From Neisseriaceae bacterium (lineage in GTDB: Bacteria > Pseudomonadota > Gammaproteobacteria > Burkholderiales > UBA11063): 64,000 nucleotides of DNA. Of this stretch, positions 7,548-30,751 are shown piece by piece (the stretch's first letter is position 1; the number at the start of each line of letters is the position of its first letter). The position numbers were made by a program, and so were the translations under genes. Below the pieces are notes generated by a model, which was not told the origin of the DNA, made no database searches, and saw only the letters and a list, made by a program, of their open reading frames with translations. The DNA is taken from NCBI GenBank assembly GCA_947446595.1, contig CANFGS010000007.1, forward strand, positions 1 through 64,000, given 5' to 3'.

Positions 7548-9192
7548 TTGGTTACAACAAATTACGCGCCCTGAAATTTGGTCAATGAAAGGCTATAGTT
7601 CAGCCCGTTCTGAAATGGCAGACTTTGCCGGAATGATACAGCTTGATGCTAATGAAAATCCATTTCTACCATACCCAATGTCAAAAGAAGTGCATCAACT
7701 AAATCGCTATCCTGAGCCGCAACCAAAAGCTGTTATCTCACGTTTAGCCGCAATTTATGGAGTACACAAAGACCAAGTGCTTGTTGCTCGTGGGATGGAT
7801 GAAGTTATGGATTTACTGGTTCGGGTATTTTGTATTCCGTATAAAGATAGTATTTTATTCACGCCGCCAACTTATGGTTACTATCAAGTTGCGGCTGATA
7901 TTTCTGGAGTTGGTATTGTAAAAGTTAATCTGGAAGATGATTTTAGTCTTGATGCTGATAAACTAATTAATGCAGGGCGAAACAAAGTAAAAATAGTATT
8001 TTTATGTACTCCGAATAATCCAACGGGGAATATGATTGATATAGCAGTAATTGAAAAAATCGCCCTAAATATGCCAAATAGTATTATAGCAGTTGATGAA
8101 GCATATATGGAATTTGCAGATGCACCATCGGCGGTTAGTTTGTTAAATAAATACCCAAATATGGTGGTTATGAAAACACTGTCTAAAGCTTATGCTTTTG
8201 CTGGGGTTAGAGTTGGTACATTATTAGCGAGTAACGAGATTATTAAATTAATTGGTAAGGTGATTGCGCCATACCCAATTCCTGTTCCATCAATAAATCT
8301 GATTATTCAAGCATTATCCCCATTTGGTTTAGAGGTAGCAAATAGTAATATTGATGTTATAAAACTAGAGCGTGAACGAATGTATCAAGAGTTATCTAAG
8401 GTGTCAGGCATCCATGTTTATAAGAGTCAGGCTAATTATTTGCTAATCAAAGTATCTGAGGCTAGTAGCGTTTATCAACATTTTTTATCGCGTGGAATTA
8501 TTATTCGTAATCGTAGTCGTGATATTCCTAACACTATAAGGATTTCTATCGGTACTGTTTTGGAAAATAACCTAGTGTTACGAGCTTTTGGGGTGGATAT
8601 TAAAGAATACCTTGTTAGTGAACGAACTGCAGTAATTGTTAGAAAAACTAATGAAACTGATATACTAGCTAGAGTTAATTTAGACAAAAAAGAGCCAGTT
8701 AAAATTAGTACTGGAATTGGATTTTTTGATCATATGCTTGAACAATTAGCCAAACATGGTGGTTTTAGCTTAGAAATTAGTGCAAAAGGCGATACCCATA
8801 TTGATTACCATCATACTGTTGAAGATGTTGCTATTTCATTGGGTCAAGCATTGAAAAATGCACTAGGAGATAAGCGCGGAATTAATCGCTATGGATTTGT
8901 ATTACCTATGGATGAAGCTAATGCAGCTGCTAGTATTGATTTAAGTGGGCGTGGGGTTTTGGTGTTTAAGGCTAATTTCCCAACTCCTTTAATTGGGGAA
9001 TTCCCTGTTGAATTAGTAGAACATTTCTTTTTAAGTTTTTCTGACAAACTTGAAGCGGCAATTCATCTATCAGCAACAGGGGGAAATGCTCACCATATGG
9101 TTGAAGGCTTATTTAAGGCTTGTGCTAAAGCACTAAACCAAGCTATAAAAGAGACGAGTGATGATATTCCATCAACAAAAGGTTCAATATGA
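7540..9192 (+). CDS. HisC-HisB fusion: histidinol-phosphate aminotransferase + imidazoleglycerol-phosphate dehydratase
   Basis: One uninterrupted 550-aa frame covers two enzymes. Residues about 1-353 are a PLP-dependent class I/II aminotransferase (HisC) with LDANENPFLPYP, FLCTPNNPTGN, VDEAYMEF and the PLP lysine Lys216 in TLSKAYAFAGVRVG. Residues about 357-550 are the dehydratase domain (HisB) with RTAVIVRKTNETDI, GIGFFDHMLEQLAKH, DYHHTVEDVAISLG, LVEHFFLSF and GGNAHHMVEGLFKA. The HAD-type histidinol phosphatase half of enterobacterial HisB is absent. The fused steps are not consecutive in one active site but flank the transfer of glutamine nitrogen by HisHF and phosphate removal by HisN. The overlap with hisD is 8 bases and with hisH 4 bases. 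Confidence 0.95.
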   Translation: MSNWLQQITRPEIWSMKGYSSARSEMADFAGMIQLDANENPFLPYPMSKEVHQLNRYPEPQPKAVISRLAAIYGVHKDQVLVARGMDEVMDLLVRVFCIPYKDSILFTPPTYGYYQVAADISGVGIVKVNLEDDFSLDADKLINAGRNKVKIVFLCTPNNPTGNMIDIAVIEKIALNMPNSIIAVDEAYMEFADAPSAVSLLNKYPNMVVMKTLSKAYAFAGVRVGTLLASNEIIKLIGKVIAPYPIPVPSINLIIQALSPFGLEVANSNIDVIKLERERMYQELSKVSGIHVYKSQANYLLIKVSEASSVYQHFLSRGIIIRNRSRDIPNTIRISIGTVLENNLVLRAFGVDIKEYLVSERTAVIVRKTNETDILARVNLDKKEPVKISTGIGFFDHMLEQLAKHGGFSLEISAKGDTHIDYHHTVEDVAISLGQALKNALGDKRGINRYGFVLPMDEANAAASIDLSGRGVLVFKANFPTPLIGEFPVELVEHFFLSFSDKLEAAIHLSATGGNAHHMVEGLFKACAKALNQAIKETSDDIPSTKGSI

Positions 9193-13235: not shown

Positions 13236-14423
13236 ATGCATATTGAAGCAATAGAATTAAAAAACTTTAGAGCGTTTAAACATATAAAAATGCAGGATAT
13301 TCCCAAGTTTTGTATTATCGTTGGAGCAAATGGTACTGGAAAATCTACGATTTTTCAGGTGTTTAATTTTCTCAAGGATGCAATGTCGGATAATGTACAA
13401 ACTGCTTTGGCTAAACTTGGTGGTGGTTTGGGCTTTAAAGAAGTAAGAACTCGTAATTGTAGTGGTAGTATTGAGATAATCATTAAATTTAGAATTGAGA
13501 TTGATAAACCTCTTTGTACTTATCATTTGGAAATAGATGAAGAGGAAGGTCAACCGATTGTGGTGCGTGAAGTGCTATCTTATCGAAGAGGGCCAAGGGG
13601 TAAGCCATGGCAGTTTTTGAACTTTCGTCGAGGCTCTGGTACTGCGATTACGAATGAATTAGCTGAAATTATTGATGATACTAAATTAGATAGAGTTGAG
13701 CATACTTTAAAAGCTAAAAATATACTCGCGATTAAAGGTCTCAGTCAGTTTGAAACATTTCCAGCTGTTAAGGCTTTGGGGGATTTGATTCAAAATTGGC
13801 ATATTTCAGATTTTCATATCACTAACGCAAGATATGAAAATCCGTATGATTTTGCTGAACACTTATCAAAAGATGGTGATAACTTATCTTCGGTAACAGA
13901 TTATCTATATAAAAATCATCCTCAAGTATTCAAAGCTATTTTAAATGGATTATCACATAGAGTGCCAGGAATTGCTGATGTTGAAACAAAAATTACCGAA
14001 GAAGGTAGGGTGCTGTTAAAATTCAGAGATGGAGCTTTTGAGGATCCATTTTTAGCACGTCATGTATCAGATGGTACTATTAAAATGCTGGCATATTTAA
14101 TTTTGCTTTATGATCCAAAACCACATCCATTGTTATGCGTTGAAGAACCAGAGAATCAACTTTACCCTAAACTATTAACAGAGCTAGCAGAAGAGTTTAG
14201 GCTTTATTCACAGCGTGGAGGCCAGGTTTTTGTGTCTACACATTCTCCTGAGTTTTTAAATGCTGCCAAATTAAATGAAGTATTCTGGTTGGTAAAAAAA
14301 AGCGGTTTTACGGATATCAAACGTGCTAATACAGATAAACAAATTAGCGAATATATGCAAGATGGTGATCAACTAGGATACTTATGGCAACAAGGGTTTT
14401 TTGAAAATGTTGATCCACAATGA
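13236..14423 (+). CDS. AAA-family ATPase of an ATPase/TOPRIM two-gene module
   Basis: 395 aa. It starts with the SMC/RecF-like opening MHIEAIELKNFRAFKHI. Walker A is VGANGTGKST (about residues 30-39), a signature-like HVSDGTIKMLAYL occurs near 280, Walker B is LLCVEEPENQLYP, and an H-loop STHSPEF follows. This arrangement (AAA_21 / DUF2813, OLD-like ATPase) is typical of ATPases paired with an effector in phage-defence systems. The stop overlaps the next gene by four bases (ATGA), so the two products are made together. A DNA-repair role cannot be excluded. Confidence 0.8.
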   Translation: MHIEAIELKNFRAFKHIKMQDIPKFCIIVGANGTGKSTIFQVFNFLKDAMSDNVQTALAKLGGGLGFKEVRTRNCSGSIEIIIKFRIEIDKPLCTYHLEIDEEEGQPIVVREVLSYRRGPRGKPWQFLNFRRGSGTAITNELAEIIDDTKLDRVEHTLKAKNILAIKGLSQFETFPAVKALGDLIQNWHISDFHITNARYENPYDFAEHLSKDGDNLSSVTDYLYKNHPQVFKAILNGLSHRVPGIADVETKITEEGRVLLKFRDGAFEDPFLARHVSDGTIKMLAYLILLYDPKPHPLLCVEEPENQLYPKLLTELAEEFRLYSQRGGQVFVSTHSPEFLNAAKLNEVFWLVKKSGFTDIKRANTDKQISEYMQDGDQLGYLWQQGFFENVDPQ

Positions 14424-15364
14424 AAAAGTTGGTTTTTTGGCTAGAGGAGTTATCTGCTAAAGCCATGCTTGAAAGCCTTATTCCTAGACTTTTTATTAAT
14501 GAAGTTGGATTAAATAATTTGAAAATTGAATACCATCCTTTTCAGGGTAAGTCTGATTTGGAAAAAAATATTTCAAAAAGAATTGGTAAGTATGTTTTAC
14601 CAGATGGGTATAAAGTGGCTCATCTTATATTACGAGATCAGGATGCAGGGGATTGTAAAGTTATCAAGAAAAAGCTTCTGGAGTCAATTTCTATGGGAAC
14701 TAATTGCCCTTTGCTTGTGCGGATAGCTTGCCATGAGTTGGAGTCATTTTATTTGGCAGATCTTATGGCTGTTGAAAATGCTTTGCATATTCCAAACCTA
14801 AGGCTCTTACAAAATAAAAAAACCTATCGAAGCCCTTACTCAAAAAGAAGTCCTGCCGACTTACTTGATAAAATAACTGAAGGTATATATCAAAAAGTTT
14901 CAGGGTCAAGAGAAATTGGAAAGTTTTTGGATATATATAATCAAAGGTCTTTAAGTTTTTATCATCTAGTTAAAGGTATAAAATCGTTGCTGATGCAAAT
15001 TGGTATATCTCCTTCTGAATTACATTATAATGCTATTTATGATAAAAACTTTAATGAAATAAACCAGAAAGAGTTAGAGGATTTGCTACTGCAAGATGGG
15101 GCTAAACTAGATAGCATAACTATTTTAACCAATCTACTATTAGGTAGTGGTATTACTCTTGATACACAAGTTGAAACAGTTATTGTTGATAGCTTATACA
15201 GAGTTGAAGATAAGATATTTATTCTTAAAGAGTTTGAATTAAAACCAGATTTATTTGATGGTATCGAATATATAATAGTGTATGCTATGCATGTCACTAA
15301 TGATAGCTTTATTGCCAATTTAGGATCATTTGTTGATAAAGATAGGATTGTAATTAAAGGGTAA
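14420..15364 (+). CDS. DUF4276-like TOPRIM protein, putative nuclease partner
   Basis: 314 aa. The N-terminal part has the two TOPRIM signatures: an early acidic pair (Glu9/Glu10 in VFWLEELSAKAMLE) and a DxD motif (Asp73, Asp75 in LILRDQDAGD). ACHELESFYLAD near residue 110-121 resembles the E-W/F-LAD block of DUF4276 proteins, which are commonly encoded next to AAA ATPases. TOPRIM folds cut nucleic acid using a metal ion, so I infer a nuclease effector controlled by the upstream ATPase. The last ~110 residues go beyond the usual DUF4276 length and I do not recognise them. Confidence 0.68.
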   Translation: MKKLVFWLEELSAKAMLESLIPRLFINEVGLNNLKIEYHPFQGKSDLEKNISKRIGKYVLPDGYKVAHLILRDQDAGDCKVIKKKLLESISMGTNCPLLVRIACHELESFYLADLMAVENALHIPNLRLLQNKKTYRSPYSKRSPADLLDKITEGIYQKVSGSREIGKFLDIYNQRSLSFYHLVKGIKSLLMQIGISPSELHYNAIYDKNFNEINQKELEDLLLQDGAKLDSITILTNLLLGSGITLDTQVETVIVDSLYRVEDKIFILKEFELKPDLFDGIEYIIVYAMHVTNDSFIANLGSFVDKDRIVIKG

Positions 15365-18099: not shown

Positions 18100-18510
18100 C
18101 TAGTCATTTGGGGTTTGGCAAACTGCTTCAATATTGTATCCATCAGGATCAAATACAAAAGCAGCATAGTAATCAGGGTGATATTCCTTGCGTATTCCTG
18201 GTTTACCATTATCTTTGCCTCCAGCCTTTATTGCTGCATGATAAAATTCATCAACTTCTTTGTGGCTTGCTGCATTAAAAGCAATATGGTGTGCCGGACT
18301 GGTTGAATTCTCAGATCCTGCACTACTTATAGAAAAATCTGGAATATTAGTGGCAGATTCACCAAATGCGGCAACTTTGCTACTTCCTGTCTTTTCTTTT
18401 GTAAGATCTAACAGTTTAGCATAACCAATTGGTGCTAATGCTAATTCATACCATTTTTTACTAACTTCAAAATTATTTACAATTAAATTAACATGATTAA
18501 TCATGGTCAT
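18100..18510 (-). CDS. VOC-family (glyoxalase/bleomycin-resistance fold) protein
   Basis: 136 aa. It begins MINHVNLIVNNFEVSKKWY and ends AAFVFDPDGYNIEAVCQ, the two beta-alpha-beta-beta-beta halves of the vicinal oxygen chelate fold. The metal-ligand positions (His5 region, His in PAHHIAFNA, Glu in NIEAV) are consistent with a metal-dependent lyase or dioxygenase-like enzyme, but the substrate cannot be told. It faces argS tail to tail. Confidence 0.82.
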   Translation of the reverse strand: MTMINHVNLIVNNFEVSKKWYELALAPIGYAKLLDLTKEKTGSSKVAAFGESATNIPDFSISSAGSENSTSPAHHIAFNAASHKEVDEFYHAAIKAGGKDNGKPGIRKEYHPDYYAAFVFDPDGYNIEAVCQTPND

Positions 18511-18670
18511 TTCCTTTTAAGTTTATTATGTATAAATGAACAACATAACTATAACATACAATTCATAAAAAACTTGAGGTATAAAGTGGTAATTTTAGCT
18601 ATAAAAAAATTGTCTAATAATTTAGCTATATAATAAATGATGTTTTTAATGAAAATTTAGAATTTGAGTG

Positions 18671-18679
18671 TGGTACAAT
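18671..18679 (+). promoter_or_regulatory. Extended -10 promoter before the 2Fe-2S protein gene
   Basis: TGG followed by TACAAT (18674-18679), 55 bases upstream of the 18734 start. Likely drives the 2Fe-2S protein and the downstream kdpD-like gene. Confidence 0.4.
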
Positions 18680-18733
18680 TTTCTAACTCTAACTACAAAA
18701 TGATACTAAACTATATATAGAAAGGGGCCTAAA

Positions 18734-19036
18734 ATGTTTTATAAAAAGCATATATTTTTTTGTACTAATATAAAAAAAGATGGAGCTGGATGTGGAAGTA
18801 TCTGTAGTCAAGATATGCAAAGTTTAGCTAAAAAGCACCTCCAAAATACTGATAATTGGGGTGAGGGTAAGGTTCGTGCTAGTAAATCAGCTTGTTTGGG
18901 GCGTTGTGAGCTAGGTCCTGTTGCTGTCGTATATCCAGAAAGTACCTGGTATACATATATTGATGAAAATGATGTAGCTGAAATTATTGATAAGCATTTA
19001 ATAGATGGTGAAATTGTAAAGCGTTTGCAGATTTAA
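18734..19036 (+). CDS. Thioredoxin-like 2Fe-2S ferredoxin
   Basis: 100 aa. Cysteines in FFCTNIKKDGAGCGSICSQ and SACLGRCELGP match the 2Fe-2S ferredoxin of thioredoxin-like fold, where C-x(10-12)-C and C-x3-C hold the cluster. A small soluble electron carrier is the likely role; the partner is unknown. The AAGGGG stretch before the ATG is a strong ribosome binding site. The kdpD-like gene follows after about 20 bases, probably on the same transcript. Confidence 0.85.
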   Translation: MFYKKHIFFCTNIKKDGAGCGSICSQDMQSLAKKHLQNTDNWGEGKVRASKSACLGRCELGPVAVVYPESTWYTYIDENDVAEIIDKHLIDGEIVKRLQI

Positions 19037-19057
19037 TCAAGTAACTTGGATATAAAT

Positions 19058-21010
19058 ATGAATCATGATAATCGTCCAGATCCAGAAGAGCTATTAAAAC
19101 AAATAGAGGAGCATAAGCGTGGTAGCTTAAAGATATTTCTAGGTGCTGCTGCTGGTGTTGGTAAAACTTATGCAATGCTAAAAGCTGCAAGCCAATTAAA
19201 AGCAGATGGTGAAGATGTAGTCATTGGTTATGTTGAAACTCATAATAGGGAAGATACTAAACTTTTATTACCAAAAGATATAGAGTATATCTCTCTTAAA
19301 GTAATTAATTATAAAGGAACTGAACTTAAAGAGTTTGATATTGATAAAACTCTAGCACGCCACCCATCAATAGTTATTTTAGACGAACTTGCCCATACTA
19401 ATGTCATTGGTTCTAGAAATAGTAAACGTTATCAGGATGTTTTAGAGCTATTAAATGCAGGGATTAATGTTTATACCGCTCTAAATGTACAACACTTGGA
19501 GTCACTTAATAATATAGTCGAACAAATTACCGAAATTAAGATTAATGAAACAGTTCCTGATCAGATTGTTGAAGATGCTGATGAAGTGGTGTTAATTGAT
19601 TTACCTCCTGAAGAGCTTATCGAACGCTTAACCGATGGTAAAATATATCCAAAAGAGAGAATTGATGCTGCATTAGCAAATTTTTTTCGTAAAGGAAATC
19701 TGACTGCCTTACGTGAACTGTCACTTAGAAAAACTGCTCAGAAAGTAGATAAACAGGTTCTTGAGTATCGAAGCCAAGAGGCAATTGCTAATGTTTGGGC
19801 TAGTAATGATAAATTACTTCTGGTTTTAGAAGCTGGGCATTCAAGTGAACGAATCATTCGTCATGCTAAAAATCTATTTGATAAAGGGTTTAGTCAGTGG
19901 TTCGTCGCTTATGTTGAAAGCCCACGTTTTGAAAAAATTCGTGCTAAAGATAAACAAAGAATAGTGGATTTGCTAGATTTGTCAAGACAGTTTGGAGCTA
20001 CTGTAATCCAGGTCATTGGTGTTGATGAGGCTGTAGCTATTGCTAATACTATTAATGAATATAATATTAATACTGTTATATTAGCACAATATAAACAACC
20101 TTTATATCAAAGATTATTTCGTAAGAGTTTAGCTAATAGTTTATCTGCAATTCTTCCAAGCATTAATATGAGTTTAGTTGGTGATGAAACAATTTGGCAA
20201 ACTGGTAATATAAAATATAAAATTAATTATTTAAAAATTATACAGAAAATAGTATATTTTACGATTATCTTTGGAGTTGTGGGTGGGGTTGGATATAATT
20301 TACGAGGTTTATTATCCCCAGCTAATATTTTGATGATTTATTTATTAGTTATGATATTAGCAAATAAAGGACGCGGAAATTTGTCTGCATTCATTGCAGC
20401 TTTTATTGGTACATTGTCATTTGATTTTTTTATTATTCCAACGTCTTTTTCTATAAATGTTACAGATCCGCAATACTTGTTTACATTTATGTTTTTACTA
20501 ATAATTGGTGTTACTTTTAGTGTTATAAATGGCAATTTACGTTTTCAGGTTTCAAAGCTTAGTCGCTTACAACAGCAAAGTGAACTATTTAATACTTTAA
20601 ATCGTGATTTGGCTGGAGTTACAAAAGTCCCCCAAATAGGAGGAATAATACCAAAACTTTTTCGTTTAATGTTTCATACCAAATTTATGTTATTACTTTC
20701 TAATAGTAATGAAAAGCTTGAGTTTAACTGTGGGGAAAGTTTAAGTCATTATGATGAAAGTATAGCTTCATGGGTATTTACCAATAAACACAGTGCTGGT
20801 CGCAATACCGATACATTTGCAGGTAATAATTTATATTATACTCCTATACTATTTAAAACTCATTCTCTCGGGGTGCTAGTAGTTGCCCCAAATGATTCTG
20901 TTGAGTTCTTTTTACCTGATTTACAGTTATTACTTAATAGTTTTCTTGAGCAATTAGCTATTACGCTAGAGCGTATTTATTTGACAAAACCACACAAAAT
21001 CAGTAATTAA
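19058..21010 (+). CDS. kdpD: KdpD-like sensor without histidine kinase domain
   Basis: 650 aa against about 890 for E. coli KdpD. In order: the KdpD N-terminal domain with Walker A GAAAGVGKTYAML and Walker B ILDELAHTN (residues about 15-210), a universal-stress-like domain (about 245-365), four membrane segments of the DUF4118 type (about 390-485) and a GAF-like region to the end. The dimerisation/phosphoacceptor helix and the ATPase domain are missing, and the frame ends cleanly before emrB. No kdpE lies in the window. I prefer the ATG at 19058, which has GGA seven bases upstream; an in-frame TTG at 19046 would add four residues. It may sense potassium or cyclic di-AMP, but signalling by phosphotransfer is not possible with this chain alone. 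Confidence 0.88.
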   Translation: MNHDNRPDPEELLKQIEEHKRGSLKIFLGAAAGVGKTYAMLKAASQLKADGEDVVIGYVETHNREDTKLLLPKDIEYISLKVINYKGTELKEFDIDKTLARHPSIVILDELAHTNVIGSRNSKRYQDVLELLNAGINVYTALNVQHLESLNNIVEQITEIKINETVPDQIVEDADEVVLIDLPPEELIERLTDGKIYPKERIDAALANFFRKGNLTALRELSLRKTAQKVDKQVLEYRSQEAIANVWASNDKLLLVLEAGHSSERIIRHAKNLFDKGFSQWFVAYVESPRFEKIRAKDKQRIVDLLDLSRQFGATVIQVIGVDEAVAIANTINEYNINTVILAQYKQPLYQRLFRKSLANSLSAILPSINMSLVGDETIWQTGNIKYKINYLKIIQKIVYFTIIFGVVGGVGYNLRGLLSPANILMIYLLVMILANKGRGNLSAFIAAFIGTLSFDFFIIPTSFSINVTDPQYLFTFMFLLIIGVTFSVINGNLRFQVSKLSRLQQQSELFNTLNRDLAGVTKVPQIGGIIPKLFRLMFHTKFMLLLSNSNEKLEFNCGESLSHYDESIASWVFTNKHSAGRNTDTFAGNNLYYTPILFKTHSLGVLVVAPNDSVEFFLPDLQLLLNSFLEQLAITLERIYLTKPHKISN

Positions 21011-21046
21011 TTTATTGATGACACTCAAAAGTGAGATTATTTGTAG

Positions 21047-21052
21047 TATAAT
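21047..21052 (+). promoter_or_regulatory. Candidate -10 box of the efflux operon
   Basis: A perfect TATAAT 34 bases before the emrB start, in the 69-base gap after kdpD. A convincing -35 at normal spacing is not seen. Confidence 0.4.
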
Positions 21053-21085
21053 TCATCTTTCATATAGATATTAGCGAAAGTGAAT

Positions 21086-22591
21086 ATGAGCATCTGGACT
21101 GAGCGTCGAACAATTGTTGCATATGCCCTAAGTATATTGGCATTAGCTGAAATTATTGACTTGACTATTGTATCCGTTGCGATTCCTGATTTAATGGGAG
21201 CACTAGGTGCTAATATCAACGATATTTCATTAACCATGACAAGCTATATAGTTGCTGCTGCAATATGTATACCACTAACTGGGTTAATGACCAAAAAATA
21301 TGGCACTAAAAATGTAGCGCTTATTTCAACTATTATCTTTGGTTGCGCTTCAATTCTATGCGGAACAGCAACAAATCTAGAACAGATGATTATATACCGC
21401 TTGATTCAAGGGGTTGGCGGTGCTTTCTTACCAGCTTTAGCTCAATCCCATGTTGTTGGAAATTTCACAGAAGAAGAACAACCCAAAATAATGTCAATAG
21501 TAACTATCTGTATTGTTTTAGGTCCAATTATTGGTCCTGTAATGGGTGGTACTATTATTGAAAATTGGAATTGGAGATGGGTTTTTTATGTAAATGTACC
21601 TGTATGTACTCTAGGTTTTGTTATGCTGTTATTTTTTATGGAAGACAGCAAAAAAGAAGATGTGAAGATTGATTTTACAAGCTTCTTTTTTATGCTAGTT
21701 GGGGTTGGGTGTCTTGAGTATTTTGTTGATGAGGGAAATACTAATCAATGGTTCCAGTCTATTGAGATGATTTGTTTATTAGCAGTTGCGATTATATTTT
21801 TGGGTTTTTTTGTATGGCGGGGACGTATTTTATCTGCAGTAGTAAATTTTGCGATTTTCAAGAATCCAAATTTTGTATTGTCGTGTATTATGATGTTTGT
21901 ATTTTTTGCAATGTTATCAGGTGGTCTTACATATTTTTCATCAATGCTACAAAATGTTTATGGAATGGCAGTTGATACTGCAGGTTATTTGCAGGTGCCG
22001 CGTGGTGTAGCTGCAGTTATTGGCGCTCCTATTTATATTCATTTGAGTAAGAAAATAGATGCTCGTATTTTAATGTCATTTGCAATGTTATTAAGTGGGG
22101 CTTGTCTAATTGGAATGAGTTATATGGGGCCTTCTCCGAATATTAAATTAATATTCCTCTTGATATTCTTGCAAGGTTTTGGGATGATAGGTATATTTGT
22201 ATTATTAATATCAACCGCTTATATTGGAGTGCCTGAAGAATTAAGTGGGGACTGCTCTGGTGTGTTTAATTTTGCTCGGAATTTTTCGATGTCAATTGGT
22301 ACTTCAATTGCGGCAACGGTATTATCAACCCAACAACAAGTTGTCTGGAGTGATTTAGTCTCACATGTATCTGATTATGCTCGTGGGTTTCATATATGGT
22401 CACAAAATCTAAGTGGATTGTCTAGTACCAGAAATGCACAATTAATATCATATACAGTACAAAAAGGCTCTTTGTTTCAGTCATATCTTGACTTATATTT
22501 TATGACGGGCTGTATTATTTTAGGTATATTTTGGATGCCATTTATTTTGAAGCGGCCAAAACCAAATGCAAAACCTGTAATGGCACATTAA
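21086..22591 (+). CDS. emrB: DHA2-family MFS drug exporter, EmrB type
   Basis: 501 aa with about 14 hydrophobic segments. The DHA2 drug:proton antiporter family is shown by LAEIIDLTIVSVAIPDLMG (motif D1, segment 1), LMTKKYGTKNV (motif A) and RLIQGVGGAFLPAL plus GPIIGPVMGGTIIENWNWRW (motif C and the loop after it). With the membrane-fusion and outer-membrane genes behind it, it forms a tripartite pump from the inner membrane to the outside. I chose the ATG at 21086 (GAAAG five bases upstream) over a GTG at 21080. Confidence 0.9.
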   Translation: MSIWTERRTIVAYALSILALAEIIDLTIVSVAIPDLMGALGANINDISLTMTSYIVAAAICIPLTGLMTKKYGTKNVALISTIIFGCASILCGTATNLEQMIIYRLIQGVGGAFLPALAQSHVVGNFTEEEQPKIMSIVTICIVLGPIIGPVMGGTIIENWNWRWVFYVNVPVCTLGFVMLLFFMEDSKKEDVKIDFTSFFFMLVGVGCLEYFVDEGNTNQWFQSIEMICLLAVAIIFLGFFVWRGRILSAVVNFAIFKNPNFVLSCIMMFVFFAMLSGGLTYFSSMLQNVYGMAVDTAGYLQVPRGVAAVIGAPIYIHLSKKIDARILMSFAMLLSGACLIGMSYMGPSPNIKLIFLLIFLQGFGMIGIFVLLISTAYIGVPEELSGDCSGVFNFARNFSMSIGTSIAATVLSTQQQVVWSDLVSHVSDYARGFHIWSQNLSGLSSTRNAQLISYTVQKGSLFQSYLDLYFMTGCIILGIFWMPFILKRPKPNAKPVMAH

Positions 22592-22622
22592 ACTTTTAGT
22601 ATTTATTTAAGGATTATCCACA

Positions 22623-23639
22623 ATGGAAGAACAACAAGCTGCTAAAATGCGTAAGCAAACTAATACACAAAAATCATCTAAAAATCTTTTTATAGGTGGT
22701 GGAGTAATTGCATTGGTGGCAATAGCTATAGCCTTATATTATAATCATACGCGTAAGTACCCAAGTACAGATGATGCATATGTAAATGCTAATTTGATTA
22801 ATATAGCTCCAAAAGTTGGTGGGTTTATTAAAAATATCAATGTATCTAAAAATCAATTAGTACATAAGGGTGACTTGTTATTTCAAATTGACCCCATAGA
22901 TTATATGTTAGAATCAAATCAAACAGCCCATCAGGTCTCGTATGCACAGCAACAGGTGGATGTTGAGAGTCAGAATATAGCAGTTGCTAAAGTGAATGTG
23001 GCTAAAGCAAAAGCGGATTATGATTTTAGTCAAAAAATGGCAAAACGGTATACTAATTTATTTAAGCAAAAAGCTGGTACTGAGCAGGATATGCAAAAAT
23101 ATGTTAATGATGCTACCCAGTCTAAACAACAGCTTGATGCTATGAATTTAGCTTATAGTCAATCACATACACGCTATAAATCAGCTCTAGCACAATTAAA
23201 TGCTAATAAATCAGCTCTAGATAGTGCAATTACTCAAACTAGCTATGCAGATATTTATGCAGGTGCTAATGGGTTTATTACTAATCTAAATCTTGCTGAG
23301 GGGCAGTTGGTTCAATCTGGAGAGAATCTTTTTGGTTTGGTGGATGATAGTAGTTGGTGGGTTGATGCTAATTTCAAAGAAACTCAGATTGAGCGTATTA
23401 AAGTGGGCCAGATGGCAAAGGTAAAACTTGATCTTTATGACCACGTGTATACCGGTGTAGTTCAAAGCATAAGTCGTGCGAGTGGCAATACTTTCTCAAT
23501 ATTACCCGCACAAAATGCAACTGGTAATTGGGTTAAGGTTACTCAACGCTTTACCGTAGTAATTAAAATAGAAGATGACCCTAAATTTCCGCTTCGAGTT
23601 GGTGCAAGTACTGAAGTTACTGTTGATACTACTAAGTAA
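22623..23639 (+). CDS. emrA: Membrane-fusion (HlyD/EmrA) periplasmic adaptor
   Basis: 338 aa. A cytoplasmic N-terminus is followed by one membrane segment (about 24-42). Then comes the biotinyl-lipoyl-like segment STDDAYVNANLINIAPKVGG, a long alpha-hairpin coiled coil (about 95-200) and the barrel segment with PVGxS-like residues near the C-terminus (GASTEVTVD). It links EmrB to the outer-membrane channel. It begins 31 bases after emrB and ends 15 bases before the channel gene. Confidence 0.9.
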   Translation: MEEQQAAKMRKQTNTQKSSKNLFIGGGVIALVAIAIALYYNHTRKYPSTDDAYVNANLINIAPKVGGFIKNINVSKNQLVHKGDLLFQIDPIDYMLESNQTAHQVSYAQQQVDVESQNIAVAKVNVAKAKADYDFSQKMAKRYTNLFKQKAGTEQDMQKYVNDATQSKQQLDAMNLAYSQSHTRYKSALAQLNANKSALDSAITQTSYADIYAGANGFITNLNLAEGQLVQSGENLFGLVDDSSWWVDANFKETQIERIKVGQMAKVKLDLYDHVYTGVVQSISRASGNTFSILPAQNATGNWVKVTQRFTVVIKIEDDPKFPLRVGASTEVTVDTTK

Positions 23640-23654
23640 GACGGGGAGACTATA

Positions 23655-25121
23655 ATGAAGTTAAAGTTATTAAATGTGCTGTTGGTATCAGGAATACTTG
23701 CTGGGTGCGGTTTACTTGGCCCAGATTATAAAAAGCCTGATATAGATACACCATCAAATTGGAAAAATGGACATAGCAATGTGAATGAAAGTAGTGCTTT
23801 AATGTCAGACACAGCTTGGTGGGAGCAATTTAAAAATCCTGAGTTAAATGAAATGATACATCAGGCTTTACTTAATAATAATAATATACAAATAGCAATC
23901 GGTAATATAGCACAAGCACAAGCATCTCTTAAAAAAGCTCAGATGGCTTGGGTTCCTACGATAAACTTTGGTGGTAGTGCATTTGTTGGGCAGTCATTTA
24001 ACCAAAACGTTACTCCAACAGGTGCATTAAGTACAATTCCAATTGCTAACAATCTAGATTTTAATGGTGCTTATGCAGGATTTACTCCATCGTATTCGTT
24101 TAATATATTTCAAAATATAAAAAATGAAGATGTAGCAAAATTAAATCTAAAAGTGCAACAAGCGTCCAAAAATTCGGTGCGACTTGCTGTTATAGGTCAA
24201 GTTTCTGGTGGTTATTTCACGCTACTAGGGTTGCATAAGCAGCTTGAATTAGAAAAACAAATGGTAGCTGACCTTGAAGAAAATCGTAAATACACCAAAG
24301 TACAAATTGCAAATGGCTCACAAAGTCAAATGAATTTAGATGAAATTGATCAAGCTGTATATAGTATTAGTGTTAATTTATCATCAATTAAAGATAATAT
24401 TGCACAGACACAAAATGCACTTCAAGTTTTAATGAATAAAAATCCAGATACTATTATTACTAATACTGATTTTGATGATATTGAGACTGATGGAGTAGTA
24501 CCAATTAATTTACCATCTGAAGTACTAAAAAACCGTCCAGATATTATTTATTCAGAATATCAAGTACAAGTTAGTAATGCTCAAATTGGTGTTGCTATGT
24601 CGGCATTTTTCCCAAGCATTAATTTAACTTCACCGGTTGGGTTAAGTACTTTTCAACTAAGTAATCTACTAAACGGTAGTAATGATTTTTGGGTAACACA
24701 AGTTAGTGCAGCTATGCCGATACTGAATCTTGGTATCTATCAAGATATTAAGAAATCAAAAGCTAATTATTATTCTGCATACTATAATTATATTCAAACA
24801 GTTAGAAGTGCGTTTGCTGATGTAGATAATAATTTATCTAAGCATGCAAGTACTGATGAAGCATATGAAGTTCAACAAAAAAGTATGCATGCAGCAAATG
24901 AATTATATCACTTAGGAACTCTAGAATATAAAAATGGTGCAAAAAGCTATGCAAGTACTATAAATTATAAAATAAATATTGATAATACTAAATTAAATCT
25001 TAACAAAGCAAAAATGAATCAGCTAATTAGTATAGTTAATTTATATCAATCTTTGGGTGGTGGTTATAATATAGATAATACTGAAAGCCAAAACAAATTT
25101 GGTGATAGCCACGACATCTAA
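23655..25121 (+). CDS. Outer-membrane efflux lipoprotein (NodT/OprM type)
   Basis: 488 aa. A lipoprotein signal peptide ends in the lipobox LAGC (Cys18). The mature protein begins with the family's GPDYKKP and WWEQFKNPELNEMI, followed by two repeated outer-membrane-efflux-protein halves with long helices and two beta-strand pairs, including LKNRPDIIYSEYQV between the halves. It is the TolC-like channel of the emrAB pump. Transcription then passes into a 98-base gap holding the kdpB promoter. Confidence 0.92.
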   Translation: MKLKLLNVLLVSGILAGCGLLGPDYKKPDIDTPSNWKNGHSNVNESSALMSDTAWWEQFKNPELNEMIHQALLNNNNIQIAIGNIAQAQASLKKAQMAWVPTINFGGSAFVGQSFNQNVTPTGALSTIPIANNLDFNGAYAGFTPSYSFNIFQNIKNEDVAKLNLKVQQASKNSVRLAVIGQVSGGYFTLLGLHKQLELEKQMVADLEENRKYTKVQIANGSQSQMNLDEIDQAVYSISVNLSSIKDNIAQTQNALQVLMNKNPDTIITNTDFDDIETDGVVPINLPSEVLKNRPDIIYSEYQVQVSNAQIGVAMSAFFPSINLTSPVGLSTFQLSNLLNGSNDFWVTQVSAAMPILNLGIYQDIKKSKANYYSAYYNYIQTVRSAFADVDNNLSKHASTDEAYEVQQKSMHAANELYHLGTLEYKNGAKSYASTINYKINIDNTKLNLNKAKMNQLISIVNLYQSLGGGYNIDNTESQNKFGDSHDI

Positions 25122-25145
25122 CCCAAATTTTACTAAATTATATTA

Positions 25146-25175
25146 TTGACAACTAGCCTAGTGCAGTAGTATAGT
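25146..25175 (+). promoter_or_regulatory. Sigma-70-type promoter of kdpBCFA
   Basis: A perfect -35 TTGACA (25146-25151) and a -10 TATAGT (25170-25175) with 18 bases between, about 45 bases before kdpB. No direct repeat resembling a KdpE site was identified. Confidence 0.5.
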
Positions 25176-25219
25176 ATTGCAATTCTTCAAGTTTATTTAA
25201 TATTTTAGTATTGAAGGTT

Positions 25220-27271
25220 ATGAAACATAAAAATTTATTTGATAAAAAGATGCTAATTCCAGCATTAATCGATAGTTTTCTTAAGTTAAACCCCAAAGCC
25301 CAAGCCAAAAATCCCGTTATGTTTGTAGTATATATCGGGAGTATCCTAACTACATTCTTGGTTGTTTATTCTCTGTGCGGATATGATGCAGGTGGAACTA
25401 CTGGTTTTATTTTAAGTATTACTTTATGGCTATGGTTTACTTTATTATTCGCTAATTTCGCTGAAAGTATTGCCGAGGGTAGATCTAAGGCTCAAGCTGA
25501 AAGCCTAAAAAGTGTCAAAAAAGATGTTCCTGCAAAACTTCTTAAACATGCCAAATTTGGCACACGTCCTGATGTTGTCTCAAGTAGTACCTTAAAAAAA
25601 GGTGATATAGTTTTAATTGAGGCAGGGGATATAATTCCTTGTGACGGTGAAGTACTAAATGGGTGTGCTTCAGTTGATGAAAGTGCTATTACTGGAGAGT
25701 CAGCACCTGTAATTCGCGAGTCAGGTGGTGATTTTTGTTCAGTTACAGGTGGCACGAGAGTTTTATCTGATTGGGTTATTGTGCAAATTAGTGTAAACCC
25801 AGGGGAGAGTTTTCTTGATCGAATGATTTCGATGGTTGAGGGGGCTAAACGTCAAAAGACTCCTAATGAAATTGCTTTATCGATACTATTAACTGCATTA
25901 ACAATAGTATTTTTATTAGTTGTAGTTACCTTACTTCCAATGTCTATTTATAGTGTAAATGCTAATCATAGCGGTAGTCCAATTACAATAACCATTCTTG
26001 TTGCTCTTCTGGTTTGCTTGATTCCAACTACTATTGGGGGTTTATTGTCAGCTATTGGTGTAGCAGGTATGGGGCGCATGATGGAAGCTAATGTAATAGC
26101 TACTTCAGGTCGCGCGATTGAAGCTTCAGGTGATGTTGATGTCTTACTTCTTGATAAAACAGGTACTATTACTTATGGTAATCGTCAAGCACGTAATTTT
26201 TATCCGTTAGCAAATGTTGATAAAAAAGTATTAGCCGAGAGTTGCTTTTATTCATCCCTTGCTGATGAGACACCTGAAGGTAAAAGTATTATTTTATTAT
26301 CTCATGAATATGGTTTTAATGAAAATACCATTGATAAAGAAAAAATGACGTTTGTACCATTTACTGCTCAAACTAGAATGTCTGGAGTTGATATTGATGA
26401 TATTATAATTCGTAAGGGTGCATCTGATGCAATTAAGCGCTATATAATAGAAAATAAAGGTATATTCCCAGATGAAGCGCAAAAGATAGTTGATATGGTA
26501 GCTTCTCGTGGCTCTACTCCTTTAGCTGTTGCTAAAGGTAATGAAGTACTTGGGATTATCGAATTAAAAGATATCGTAAAAGAAGGTATTAAAGAAAAAT
26601 TTGCTCAGTTACGCCAAATGGGTATTAAAACCATTATGGTTACAGGTAATAATCGATTAACTGCAGCGGCTATTACAGCCGAAGCTGGAGTTGATGATTT
26701 TTTAGCGGAAGCTACACCAGAGGCAAAATTAGAAATTATTCGTAAATACCAAGCGTCAGGTAATCTAGTAGCTATGACTGGAGATGGCACTAATGATGCT
26801 CCAGCATTAGCACAAGCTGATGTGGCGGTTGCTATGAATAGTGGCACACAAGCCGCAAAAGAAGCTGCTAATATGGTTGATCTAGACTCATCACCTACAA
26901 AACTAATCCAGATAGTTGAAATTGGTAAACAGATGTTGATGACCCGAGGTTCTTTGACAACATTTAGTATAGCTAATGATATTGCCAAATATTTTGCAAT
27001 TATACCAGCAACTTTCGCTTCAACCTATCCAGTTCTAAATAAATTAAATATTATGCATTTGGCATCTCCAGCTTCAGCAATTTTATCTGCTGTGATATTT
27101 AATGCTTTAATAATAATAGCATTAATTCCATTAGCATTAAAAGGGGTTAGCTTTAAACCAATGAGTGCTAGTAGTTTACTTAGACGGAATTTTTTAATTT
27201 ATGGTTTGGGTGGCGTTATTGTGCCATTTATTGGTATTAAAATAATTGATACCATTTTACAATTAATTTAG
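25220..27271 (+). CDS. kdpB: Potassium-transporting P-type ATPase, ATP-binding subunit
   Basis: 683 aa. KdpB hydrolyses ATP to power high-affinity potassium uptake through KdpA. Features: [17 protein letters not shown] (actuator loop), a membrane segment with [13 protein letters not shown], phosphorylation motif [11 protein letters not shown], the MSGVD nucleotide-binding region, and [19 protein letters not shown]. Length and domain order are normal. I use the ATG at 25220, which matches the family N-terminus ([13 protein letters not shown]); a TTG at 25211 is less likely. It is the first gene of the operon, unlike kdpFABC. Confidence 0.95.
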
Positions 27272-27279
27272 GATTAATT

Positions 27280-27840
27280 ATGCAGCAAATAAAATCAGCA
27301 GTAATAACTTTTATAGTTTTAACTATATTAACAGGAATTATTTATCCGCTTATAGTCTTTGGTTTTGGACAAGTATTTGCATCTTATGAGGCTAATGGTA
27401 GCCTCGTAACAGTTAACGGTAAAATTATAGGTTCGGCACTTATTGGGCAAAGTTTTACTGATAATAAATATCTGTGGGGTAGGCCATCAGCAACTGGAGA
27501 CCATCCTTATAATCCTCTTGCTTCAGGTGGGGCTAATCTTGGTCCTAGTAATCCAAATCTTTTAAATGCAGTAACTGATAGGGTAAATACTTTAGGTGCA
27601 AATGCGATTAATCCAGCTCCTATTGACTTGGTAACTAGCTCTGGAAGTGGTCTTGATCCAGATATTAGTATTGCTTCAGCTTATTTTCAGATTAAAAGAA
27701 TTGCCAAAGCTCGTGGTATTAGTGAAGATAGTGTAGAAAATATTATTAATAAAAATGCCAAATATCCACTTTTAGGATTTATTGGTGAACCACGAGTTAA
27801 TGTTTTAGAAGTTAATCTAGCTTTAGATGGGGTTAAATAA
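27280..27840 (+). CDS. kdpC: Potassium-transporting ATPase KdpC subunit
   Basis: 186 aa. One N-terminal membrane segment (about 8-30) is followed by a periplasmic domain with GQSFTDNKYLWGRPSATGD and the PASGLDP-like block SSGSGLDPDISIASA. KdpC is the accessory subunit that stabilises the pump and affects nucleotide affinity. It lies 8 bases after kdpB. Its stop codon shares a base with the start of kdpF. Confidence 0.95.
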   Translation: MQQIKSAVITFIVLTILTGIIYPLIVFGFGQVFASYEANGSLVTVNGKIIGSALIGQSFTDNKYLWGRPSATGDHPYNPLASGGANLGPSNPNLLNAVTDRVNTLGANAINPAPIDLVTSSGSGLDPDISIASAYFQIKRIAKARGISEDSVENIINKNAKYPLLGFIGEPRVNVLEVNLALDGVK

Positions 27841-27929
27841 TGGATTTTTTATATATTATTTCTGGTATTATTGCAATTGGTTTACTTATTTATCTAATTA
27901 TTACTTTATTTTTTCCTGAAAAGTTTTAA
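27840..27929 (+). CDS. kdpF: KdpF small membrane subunit (29 aa)
   Basis: A 29-codon frame whose ATG shares its A with the kdpC stop. The peptide is one hydrophobic helix (IISGIIAIGLLIYLIITL) ending FFPEKF. This matches the KdpF ending, usually (L/F)xPE(K/R)F, and kdpF is normally next to kdpA, as here. KdpF stabilises the KdpABC complex in the inner membrane. It is too short for most gene callers. Stop 9 bases before kdpA. Confidence 0.85.
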   Translation: MDFLYIISGIIAIGLLIYLIITLFFPEKF

Positions 27930-27938
27930 GGTCAAAAA

Positions 27939-29684
27939 ATGATTATAGCTTATATTGATTTAGTGGTTTTTCTTGTAGTATTAACTTTCCTATCTATCGT
28001 ACTTGGGCGTTATATTGCTCTTGTATTTAATGGAAGGGTTAGTTATTTGTCTTTTATTGAACGTCCATTATATAAATTAATTGGTAATACAGGTGAAATG
28101 AAATGGGGGCAATATGCTAAAGGCATCATGTTATTTAATATTATAGGCATAGTATTTGTATTTATATTTCAGCTAATTCAGGGTGCTTTACCACTAAATC
28201 CTCAGCATTTAGGGGCAACAACTCTAGATCTGGCATTAAATACAGCAATTAGTTTTGTAAGTAACACCAATTGGCAATCATATACTCCTGAGACAACTCT
28301 CAGTTATTTAACTCAAATGCTAGCTTTAGCAGTACAGAATTTCTTATCGGCAGCAACTGGGGTGGCGGTTCTAATTGCTTTAATTCGTGGGTTTGTGGCT
28401 GTAGAAAAAGGTACAATAGGTAATGTATGGGAAGATTTAGTAAAATCTACGTTGTATATATTATTGCCATTATCTTTAATTTTGGGTTTTGCTTTAGTAA
28501 AGCTTGGGGTTCCACAGAATTTTAATAATTATCAAGATGTACAATTGATTAATCCACAAGTAGTATCAGTAACAGTTGATGGTAAAACTACAACTAATAG
28601 GTTTACTACCCAAACAATACCCATGGGGCCAGTTGCATCACAAGAAGCAATTAAAATGATAGGTACGAATGGTGGTGGGTTTTTTAATGCTAATTCAGCA
28701 CATCCCTATGAAAACCCAAATGCTATTTCAAATTGGCTTGAAATGCTTGCAATTTTATTAATTCCAGGTAGTTTATGTTTCGCTTTTGGCAGAATGGTTG
28801 GGGATAAGCGTCAAGGGTATACTTTATATGCTGTAATGACAATTGTATTTATTATTTTGGCAATAGGGGTTATGCTTGCTGAATTTAATGGGAATCCAGC
28901 ATTTTATCACCTCTCAATTGATGGGGTTATGAATTTGCTTCAAAGTGGTGGCAATATGGAGGGTAAAGAAGTACGCTTTGGTGTCTTTGGTTCTGGTTTA
29001 TTTGCTGCTGTTACTACCGCTGCTTCATGTGGAGCTGTTAATGCTATGCATGATTCTTTAATGCCATTAGGTGGCTTGGTTCCATTGTTTTTAATGCAGT
29101 TATCTGAAGTGATCTACGGTGGTGTAGGTAGTGGCTTATATGGGATGCTTATATTTTTTGCAGTTTTGTCTGTTTTTATAGCCGGGCTTATGATAGGTAG
29201 AACTCCAGAATATTTGGGTAAGAAGATTGAAAGTTTTGAAATGAAAATGGTAGCATTAGTAATTTTGGTAGTGCCATTATTAGTTTTGCTTGGTACTGCT
29301 ATATCTGTTGTAATTGCCCCTGGGTTAGTAGGAATGAGTAATCCAAGCGCTCATGGATTGTCAGAGGTGCTTTATGCCTTTACATCAGCTGCTAATAATA
29401 ATGGTAGCGCGTTTGCTGGTTTAAATGCTAATACACCTTATTATAATTTAATGCTTGGTTTTACAATTTTTGTTGGACGTTATGGAGTAATAATTCCAGT
29501 CTTAGCAATTGCAGGGAGTTTGGCTAGCAAGAAACGTTTAAATGTAACGAGTGGAACCATGCCGACTCACGGCTTATTATTTATCGGAATTTTAATTGGG
29601 GTGATAATAATTGTTGGTGCTCTAACTTATGTCCCGGCACTAGCTCTTGGACCTATTGTAGAACATTTGATATTATTTAAGTAA
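27939..29684 (+). CDS. kdpA: Potassium-transporting ATPase, channel-like subunit
   Basis: 581 aa, about ten membrane segments. KdpA selects and translocates potassium. The four selectivity-filter loops are recognisable, for example FVSNTNWQSY (loop 1), GTNGGGFFNANSAHPYENPN (loop 2), TTAASCGAVNAMHDS (loop 3) and SAANNNGSAFAGLNANTPYYN (loop 4). It is last in the order kdpB-C-F-A, which is rearranged from the usual kdpF-A-B-C. Confidence 0.96.
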   Translation: MIIAYIDLVVFLVVLTFLSIVLGRYIALVFNGRVSYLSFIERPLYKLIGNTGEMKWGQYAKGIMLFNIIGIVFVFIFQLIQGALPLNPQHLGATTLDLALNTAISFVSNTNWQSYTPETTLSYLTQMLALAVQNFLSAATGVAVLIALIRGFVAVEKGTIGNVWEDLVKSTLYILLPLSLILGFALVKLGVPQNFNNYQDVQLINPQVVSVTVDGKTTTNRFTTQTIPMGPVASQEAIKMIGTNGGGFFNANSAHPYENPNAISNWLEMLAILLIPGSLCFAFGRMVGDKRQGYTLYAVMTIVFIILAIGVMLAEFNGNPAFYHLSIDGVMNLLQSGGNMEGKEVRFGVFGSGLFAAVTTAASCGAVNAMHDSLMPLGGLVPLFLMQLSEVIYGGVGSGLYGMLIFFAVLSVFIAGLMIGRTPEYLGKKIESFEMKMVALVILVVPLLVLLGTAISVVIAPGLVGMSNPSAHGLSEVLYAFTSAANNNGSAFAGLNANTPYYNLMLGFTIFVGRYGVIIPVLAIAGSLASKKRLNVTSGTMPTHGLLFIGILIGVIIIVGALTYVPALALGPIVEHLILFK

Positions 29685-29695
29685 ATTTTGTGCTA

Positions 29696-29718
29696 AGCAG
29701 CCTATATATTAGGCTGCT
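29696..29718. terminator. Hairpin between convergent kdpA and glk
   Basis: AGCAGCCT pairs with AGGCTGCT across a 7-base AT loop, right after kdpA and before the end of glk. There is no clear T run on either side, so it is a candidate bidirectional terminator only. Confidence 0.55.
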
Positions 29719-29740
29719 AGCAATTTATAGATATGTAATG

Positions 29741-30751
29741 TTAAGGTATATAGCCTTTATTAATGAATACATCAAGAGCATAACTTGCTCCTAGAAATGC
29801 TGGGAATTGATCAGTAATTACAAAAACTGGCATTTTAGTTAAAAATGGACGATAGCGTCCTTTGCTCTCAAAGCGTGATCTAAAGTCTGATGCTATAAAG
29901 AAATCTAAAATTCTAGGTATTATTCCTCCACCTATATATACACCACCAAATGCATTTACCATTACCGCATGATTTGATGCAATAGTTCCTAAGATGCGAC
30001 AGAAAATATCTAAAGTTCTAGTACATACCAAGTTACCTTTTTGACCTAATTCAGTAATTTCTGAAGGTTGTGGGATGCTTTTTATGTTTATACGTTTAAA
30101 CTCACATATTGCTTCATAAATTAATTGTAAGCCAGGGCCAGATAGGAAGCGTTCAGCTGACACATGATTGAAGCGTTTATGTAGAAATGTCCATAATTCA
30201 ACTTCTTCTTGATTTACCGCAGGGAAACTAGAGCGTCCACCTTCAGCAGGTATTGAAAAATAGCCTTCAATTGGATGTTTAACTAATGTCGCCATGCCAA
30301 GCCCAGTTCCTGGTCCAATAATTGCCATTGGTTTATTAGGGGCGGGCTCATCTGTACCACCTATTCTAACAAGGTGATCTTTACTAATATGAGGTACTGA
30401 GAGAGCTAGAGCATGAAAATCATTTAAAAATAATATACTATCTAATCCAGTCTCTTTTTTTGTTTTGGACATCGATTGCCCGTGCCACGGACTATTTACC
30501 ATAAATAATATATCGTCAACTTCAGGTGTGGGTAATGCAAGTGCTGCATGATGTACTTTACCTATCATATTAACTGATGTAAGGTACTCGATAACAGCCA
30601 TAGCTAATGTCTTAAACTTTTTACACTCTAAAACCATTGTTGATTCATATTTATATGGACTAATTTCGATACTAAATCGTGCATTAGTGCCTCCGATATC
30701 GGCAATTAGACGAGGGAATGATTTTACAGGCATATTTTTCTTTCTATTCAT
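29741..30751 (-). CDS. glk: Glucokinase
   Basis: 336 aa. It phosphorylates glucose with ATP in the cytoplasm. The bacterial Glk fold is shown by LIADIGGTNARFSIE (phosphate loop), FLNDFHALALSV with the catalytic aspartate, IGPGTGLGMATLV, PAEGGRSSFPA and a C-terminal GGVYIGGGIIPRIL block. Its start overlaps the end of pgl by 8 bases, so pgl-glk form one unit feeding glucose into the oxidative pentose phosphate or Entner-Doudoroff route. zwf and edd are not in the window. Confidence 0.93.
   Translation of the reverse strand: MNRKKNMPVKSFPRLIADIGGTNARFSIEISPYKYESTMVLECKKFKTLAMAVIEYLTSVNMIGKVHHAALALPTPEVDDILFMVNSPWHGQSMSKTKKETGLDSILFLNDFHALALSVPHISKDHLVRIGGTDEPAPNKPMAIIGPGTGLGMATLVKHPIEGYFSIPAEGGRSSFPAVNQEEVELWTFLHKRFNHVSAERFLSGPGLQLIYEAICEFKRINIKSIPQPSEITELGQKGNLVCTRTLDIFCRILGTIASNHAVMVNAFGGVYIGGGIIPRILDFFIASDFRSRFESKGRYRPFLTKMPVFVITDQFPAFLGASYALDVFINKGYIP

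What the first reader, a model, noticed from the sequence alone, without database searches (positions are those of the whole stretch)
19058..21010. KdpD lacks the histidine-kinase half and no kdpE is present
The protein keeps the KdpD nucleotide-binding, Usp-like, four-helix DUF4118 and GAF-like parts but ends where the phosphoacceptor helix should begin. The frame ends cleanly with the next gene 75 bases away, so this looks like an established short form rather than a fresh break. It could work as a potassium or cyclic di-AMP sensor that acts through another protein.
Basis: partly seen in the sequence, partly recalled or inferred. Interest (0 to 1): 0.58.

Follow-up and report, generated by a model that had tools for sequence, protein, structure and literature searches.

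The report
Potassium sensor lacking its histidine kinase
A potassium-sensing regulator in this freshwater bacterium and its relatives has lost the half that switches genes on, but keeps the half known elsewhere to switch the potassium pump itself off; this kind of short form has been described before, so it is an uncommon but not a new kind of thing.

Summary
The 650-aa kdpD (19058-21010) keeps the N-terminal KdpD, Usp, four-helix DUF4118 and GAF parts and stops just before the phospho-acceptor helix. The short form is established: in the genus, 11 of 23 genomes have kdpD, and all 10 whose 3' end is sequenced stop at the same place. Elsewhere in the order KdpDs are full length. The short proteins form one clade, all domains are under purifying selection, and kdpD occurs with kdpA even where the two are unlinked. 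The genome has no OmpR-type DNA-binding domain, no canonical receiver domain and no separate KdpD-type kinase.

The likely mechanism is published. Silberberg et al. 2024 (PMC11018627) showed that the N-terminal domain is an atypical serine kinase that phosphorylates KdpB Ser162 and shuts the pump off at high K+. An E. coli KdpD cut at residue 662 still does this. They also describe a class of KdpDs with truncated kinase parts in species lacking KdpE. The window protein carries the Walker A, Walker B and Arg190 equivalents; Trp39 is Tyr. c-di-AMP control is unlikely: no diadenylate cyclase in 61 genomes. This is a new member of a known kind, with kinase activity and K+ gating inferred, not shown.

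The parts
19058..21010 (+). kdpD, short form, 650 aa, no DHp/CA (histidine kinase) part
19115..19747 (+). KdpD N-terminal domain (PF02702), the atypical serine kinase domain by homology
   Evidence: (E 1.7e-93)
19142..19168 (+). Walker A, G-X5-GKT (residues 29-37)
   Evidence: G29, G33, G35, K36 and T37 invariant in the 9 genus members aligned
19382..19387 (+). Walker B Asp109-Glu110 (equivalents of E. coli D109/E110)
19625..19627 (+). Arg190 (equivalent of E. coli R190, adenine contact)
19805..20182 (+). Usp-like domain (limits approximate)
   Evidence: profile match to 7ji4, E 4.9e-5
20261..20557 (+). four-helix transmembrane DUF4118
   Evidence: profile match to 2ksf, E 8.1e-16
20560..20980 (+). 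GAF-like domain plus start of the helix that in full-length KdpD leads to DHp (limits approximate)
   Evidence: profile match to 4qpr, E 4.3e-19; alignment
18734..19036 (+). [2Fe-2S] ferredoxin-like gene directly upstream; same pair in G001, G003, G014
21086..25121 (+). three efflux genes (MFS 21086-22591, HlyD 22623-23639, outer-membrane factor 23655-25121) lying between kdpD and kdpB
25146..25175 (+). promoter-like site TTGACA-18-TATAGT (11 of 12), best-scoring in 18500-30000
   Evidence: the scan as a whole finds no more sites than shuffles: 46 vs 55.3
25220..27271 (+). kdpB; TGES at residues 158-161, Ser161 (codon 25700-25702) equivalent to E. coli Ser162
27280..27840 (+). kdpC
   Evidence: ORF; homologous genes beside kdpB and kdpA in relatives; name by position and reading
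27840..27929 (+). 29-aa hydrophobic ORF, probable kdpF (by position and look)
27939..29684 (+). kdpA

Best explanation
This is a KdpD reduced to its serine-kinase and sensor halves. At high K+ the transmembrane/GAF part (inferred sensor) lets the N-terminal Walker A/B domain transfer phosphate from ATP onto the serine of the TGES loop of KdpB (Ser161 here), which stops the Kdp pump; at low K+ it leaves the pump active. With KdpE and the histidine kinase gone, kdpBCFA is probably made without KdpDE control, and pump activity is set after translation. Shown here: architecture, conserved motifs, genus-wide truncation at one position, constraint, co-occurrence with the pump, absence of KdpE and of diadenylate cyclase. 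Inferred from the E. coli work: kinase activity, target and K+ gating. Constitutive expression is only a guess.
For: E. coli KdpD lacking residues 663-894 still phosphorylates KdpB and inhibits the pump, Walker A or Walker B mutants do not, and the class of KdpDs with truncated DHpCA goes with absence of KdpE (PMC11018627). The natural proteins end at E. coli positions 655-668 (9 of 10 computed; the tenth, L014, has IER for LER and was misplaced by the script but ends at the same place in the alignment), before His673. Walker A, D109/E110 and R190 are invariant in the genus. KdpB keeps TGES. All domains are constrained: dN/dS 0.00-0.06 over ASK, Usp, TM and GAF in the closest pair. kdpD and kdpA: both in 10, kdpD alone in 1 (G014, 88% complete), neither in 12 of 23 genus genomes, Fisher p 9.6e-6, not corrected for relatedness. 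kdpD stays short also where it is not next to the pump genes: G013, G019, G022. One clade, support 100/100. No DAC in 61 genomes; no Trans_reg_C in 22 of 23 genus genomes.
Against: The adenine-contact Trp39 of E. coli is Tyr in the window and Y/T/F/S in the genus (Y or F in the 12 full-length relatives too), so one of the paper's motifs is not literally kept. TGES occurs in P-type ATPases in general (recalled), so the target serine is weak evidence. The window's Usp, TM and GAF parts are only 25-27% identical to E. coli against 53.5% for the N-terminal domain, so K+ sensing by those parts is not assured. Nothing was measured. In the three more diverged pairs synonymous sites are near saturation and dN/dS reaches 0.36.
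Confidence: 0.75

Rival explanations
1. Non-enzymatic K+ sensor that docks on another kinase (for example one of the three PAS-HATPase proteins in the genome) and so works as half of a split two-component system.
For: Three PAS-HATPase_c proteins with H-box-like HDIRSP/HDITSP segments exist in the genome.
Against: None carries KdpD, Usp, DUF4118 or GAF parts; each has its own PAS sensor and REC-like tail; no OmpR-type regulator to receive a signal; the Walker motifs needed for serine kinase activity are invariant.
Confidence: 0.08
2. Cyclic di-AMP-controlled short KdpD, as in Deinococcus geothermalis.
For: Short KdpD lacking the HK part; Usp-like domain present; D. geothermalis precedent (PMC11018627).
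Against: No DAC domain in any of 61 genomes, while 11 of 14 control genomes ring; the TM and GAF parts that D. geothermalis KdpD lacks are kept and constrained.
Confidence: 0.04
3. A decaying remnant: the gene lost its second half and is drifting.
For: Two-component machinery is scarce in the genus, so loss of the HK half could be passive; kdpA is interrupted in two relatives.
Against: The same endpoint in 10 of 10 sequenced ends, open frames, low dN/dS in every domain including the last part in the closest pair, co-occurrence with kdpA.
Confidence: 0.05
4. Assembly or frameshift error that cut a full-length KdpD.
For: Single-genome finding as first reported.
Against: Ten genus assemblies end alike; no trace of KdpD residues 650-894 or KdpE in the window or nine relatives' loci at E <= 0.4.
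Confidence: 0.01

Closest known systems
KdpD versions with truncated DHpCA (Silberberg et al. 2024, PMC11018627, section 8 and part 1 of section 9 read)
   Same: KdpD domain kept, histidine kinase part missing, found mostly in species without KdpE; proposed sole role serine phosphorylation of KdpB
   Different: The discussion names Campylobacterota and Archaea for this type; here it is fixed in a genus of Pseudomonadota (the paper's supplementary species lists could not be opened)
E. coli KdpD deltaDHpCA laboratory construct (deletion of 663-894; same paper)
   Same: Ends at almost the same residue; retains inhibition of the pump
   Different: The window form is natural, diverged, and without KdpE in the cell
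Deinococcus geothermalis short KdpD (KdpD + Usp only, c-di-AMP controlled; same paper)
   Same: Serine kinase domain without HK
   Different: Lacks TM and GAF; needs c-di-AMP, for which no cyclase is found here
NCBIfam NF038185 KdpD_non_kinase
   Same: Matches over residues 6-376 (363 bits)
   Different: Below its cut-off of 550 and the model ends at 373 aa
Full-length KdpD of E. coli and relatives in the same order
   Same: Homologous over the first ~650 residues
   Different: Window protein lacks DHp and CA and has no KdpE

Membership tests
KdpD with truncated DHpCA (serine-kinase-only KdpD) | N-terminal KdpD domain with Walker A G-X5-GKT | tested here: met
KdpD with truncated DHpCA (serine-kinase-only KdpD) | Walker B Asp-Glu (E. 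coli D109/E110) | tested here: met
   10 of 10 short forms
KdpD with truncated DHpCA (serine-kinase-only KdpD) | adenine-contact pair W39/R190 | tested here: inconclusive
   R190 kept in 10 of 10; W39 is Y in the window and Y/T/F/S in the genus, Y or F in 12 of 12 full-length relatives aligned
KdpD with truncated DHpCA (serine-kinase-only KdpD) | Usp, TM and GAF parts present | tested here: met
   profile matches to 7ji4, 2ksf, 4qpr
KdpD with truncated DHpCA (serine-kinase-only KdpD) | no DHp/CA part; no KdpE in the genome | tested here: met
KdpD with truncated DHpCA (serine-kinase-only KdpD) | KdpB substrate with TGES serine | tested here: met
   (weakly specific)
KdpD with truncated DHpCA (serine-kinase-only KdpD) | serine kinase activity on KdpB, gated by K+ | not testable with these tools
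   needs biochemistry
KdpDE two-component system | phospho-acceptor histidine and ATPase domain in KdpD | tested here: not met
KdpDE two-component system | KdpE response regulator | tested here: not met
c-di-AMP-controlled short KdpD | diadenylate cyclase in the genome | tested here: not met
   0 of 61
NF038185 KdpD_non_kinase | score at or above the curated cut-off | tested here: not met
   363.1 against 550

The most novel reading that the evidence does not exclude
A lineage that has lost most two-component signalling and, in the window's genome, also Trk/Ktr and Kup, and that runs an always-expressed Kdp pump with a K+-gated serine kinase as its only regulator: potassium control moved wholly to the protein level.
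Probability: 0.3. Interest if true: 0.55.

Novelty: new member of a known kind. Interest (0 to 1): 0.36.

Why it matters
The claim that the serine kinase is the more conserved job of KdpD rests, as far as I read, on one laboratory's biochemistry and a survey of annotations (PMC11018627). Here a whole genus keeps exactly that part plus the sensor, at nearly the same cut point as the working E. coli construct, with no response regulator. It is a natural separation of function: any K+-dependent effect of this kdpD must go through something other than KdpE. A cultured relative (very probably Aquella oligotrophica P08T) exists.

Tried and rejected
Split kinase half elsewhere: rejected; none of the six HATPase_c proteins of the genome is a KdpD C-terminal half. 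KdpE elsewhere: rejected; 0 Response_reg, 0 Trans_reg_C in the genome. The one Trans_reg_C in the genus (G019) is an OmpR-type regulator on an 11-kb contig with ParA-like and replication-protein-like genes (names by reading), 31% identical to E. coli KdpE. Receivers of about 200 aa with E near 1e-30 occur in several members; the two fetched (G002, G013) sit beside a membrane protein that looks like an NtrY-type kinase and beside a cysS-like gene, not beside kdp (names are my reading). Remnant of the lost half downstream: none, best E 0.42. c-di-AMP: no cyclase. Riboswitch: Rfam finds nothing in the window at gathering thresholds. Promoter reading: one 11-of-12 site before kdpB, but the scan finds no excess over shuffles, so it is a hint only. 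Structure prediction was not run: the genus sequences came from whole-genome tools that are not on its list of allowed sources, and a single-sequence model of the window protein would probably have been poor. The paper listing gave nothing used; one search gave only PMC7535926.

Full report
Observation. The gene at 19058-21010 encodes 650 aa. Pfam finds the KdpD domain (20-230), DUF4118 (402-500) and a sub-threshold GAF_3, and neither HisKA nor HATPase_c. A profile of nine genus proteins matches four solved pieces of KdpD: 2r8r, 7ji4, 2ksf and 4qpr/4y2f. In an alignment with E. coli KdpD the last shared motif is LER at E. coli 642; the window protein ends at about position 655, before His673. 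The single H that the aligner placed under His673 belongs to the unrelated tail PHKISN and is an alignment artefact. The stop is followed by 75 bases before the ATG of the next gene.

Is it a fresh break? No. PF02702 was searched in the window's genome and 60 relatives: 11 of 23 genus genomes have a KdpD. One (G001) is cut by its contig end; the other 10 all end in frame at the same region, with protein lengths of about 650-670 aa (one, G011, lacks its start because of a contig end). In the 38 other genomes of the order in that call, 13 have KdpD: 12 with open frames of 886-1086 aa and one cut by a contig end (463 aa). In a wider draw of 300 genomes of the order, 97 have a match: 6 are of this genus (frames 657-696 aa) and 91 are not; of those 91, 88 have frames of 850 aa or more, two are cut at contig ends (G052, G302), and one (G103, 763 aa) matches only the later part of the N-terminal domain. 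In 398 genomes drawn from the phylum, 136 have an above-cut-off match; besides the window I see short frames only in G381 (a second copy, 380 aa), G492 (380 aa) and G334 (752 aa, not examined). These counts of frames were made by reading the tables. A tree of nine short forms, 12 full-length relatives and E. coli puts all nine on one side of a branch with 100/100 support and a long stem; the program warns that long branches meet (L024, which lacks its start, was left out). So one loss before the sampled members diverged is the simplest account.

Constraint. Nei-Gojobori dN/dS for the closest pair (G002, G011) is 0.028 (N-terminal), 0 (Usp), 0.034 (TM) and 0.056 (GAF). In the second pair (G013, G022) it is 0.045, not computable (saturated), 0.121 and 0.04. 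In three more diverged pairs dS is near saturation, with values from 0.07 to 0.36 where computable (all). kdpD and kdpA occur together: both in 10, kdpD only in 1 (G014, 88% complete), neither in 12 of 23 (Fisher p 9.6e-6, relatedness not corrected). This holds although linkage varies: kdpD lies directly before kdpB-kdpC-kdpA in G015, faces them tail to tail in G016, is separated from them by three efflux genes in the window, and lies on another contig in G013, G019 and G022 with no pump gene in the 12-16 kb fetched around it.

The missing partners. The window's genome (1.74 Mb, 57 contigs, 99.98% complete) has no Response_reg match at E <= 0.001, no Trans_reg_C match and six HATPase_c matches: by reading, GyrB, MutL, HtpG and three related proteins with PAS and HATPase_c, weak HisKA in two of the three, and REC-like tails that do not reach the Response_reg threshold. 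Across the genus 22 of 23 genomes lack Trans_reg_C; the exception, G019, carries one OmpR-type regulator on a small plasmid-like contig, 31% identical to E. coli KdpE. No residue of the lost kinase half or of KdpE was found in the window or nine relatives' loci around kdpD (best E 0.42).

Mechanism. Silberberg et al. 2024 (PMC11018627; I read the abstract, passages, section 8 and part 1 of section 9) show that E. coli KdpD phosphorylates KdpB Ser162 with its N-terminal Walker A/B domain, that deleting 663-894 leaves this intact, that Walker A, D109 or E110 mutations abolish it, and that the activity is K+-stimulated in native-lipid discs. They report KdpDs with truncated DHpCA, mostly in species without KdpE, and suggest that serine phosphorylation is then the only role. 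An eLife 2020 paper (PMC7535926, passages only) shows that Ser162 phosphorylation inhibits the pump. The short proteins here end within a few residues of that deletion. Walker A, Asp109/Glu110 and Arg190 are invariant; Trp39 is replaced by Tyr, as in most full-length relatives. KdpB keeps the TGES serine, though that motif is general to P-type pumps (recalled). I therefore think this KdpD is a K+-gated serine kinase for KdpB with no transcriptional role. Kinase activity and gating are inferred.

Signal. c-di-AMP is unlikely: no DAC match in 61 genomes while 11 of 14 controls ring. The TM and GAF parts, which the c-di-AMP-controlled Deinococcus form lacks, are kept and constrained here. No riboswitch is found in the window.

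Wider setting. The window's genome has no TrkH/KtrB (PF02386) and no Kup (PF02705) match, nor have the 14 other genus genomes drawn in those calls, apart from one sub-threshold hit in G009. That would make Kdp the main known K+ importer of the window's bacterium. Against over-reading this: eight genus genomes in the same calls (G004-G010, G012) lack Kdp, TrkH and Kup alike, so an importer of another family, not searched here, probably exists in the genus.

Identity. A closely related contig (91-98% protein identity over the shared genes) is named Neisseriaceae bacterium ZE-Oct18-46.

Verdict. The most likely function is already described for this architecture. What is added is a genus-wide natural case in Pseudomonadota with conserved sensor parts and no KdpE. 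I saw no paper on KdpD in this genus in the searches made, and could not open the species tables of PMC11018627.

Noticed in passing
L057-L062 (own genome); whole genus: The genus has little two-component signalling: the window's genome has no canonical receiver domain and no OmpR-type DNA-binding domain, yet three related PAS-HATPase proteins with REC-like tails (ILDDD-SIHG-W) that Pfam's receiver model does not recognise; G015 has 19 HATPase_c matches.
   Followed up: partly
G004-G010, G012: Eight genus genomes, four of them 93% complete or more, have none of KdpA, TrkH/KtrB or Kup above cut-off, so their potassium importer is unknown.
   Followed up: no
L068 8190-8320 (G016) and L078 near 7950-8110 (G019): kdpA is interrupted by frame breaks at two different places in two relatives, including the probable Aquella oligotrophica type genome; pseudogene or sequencing error not settled.
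   Followed up: partly
window 18734-19058; L064, L069, L071: A [2Fe-2S] ferredoxin-like gene is directly upstream of kdpD in the window and G001, G003, G014, overlapping it by four bases in G003.
   Followed up: no
window 25220-29684: The pump genes run kdpB-kdpC-(29-aa kdpF-like)-kdpA, not the F-A-B-C order of E. coli; the same B-C-A order is seen in G001, G013, G015, G016, G019 and G022.
   Followed up: partly
window 13236-15364: An AAA ATPase-like gene and an adjacent 314-aa gene (named by eye only) sit between serS and rpsT in the window; they are absent from that place in G001/L027.
   Followed up: no
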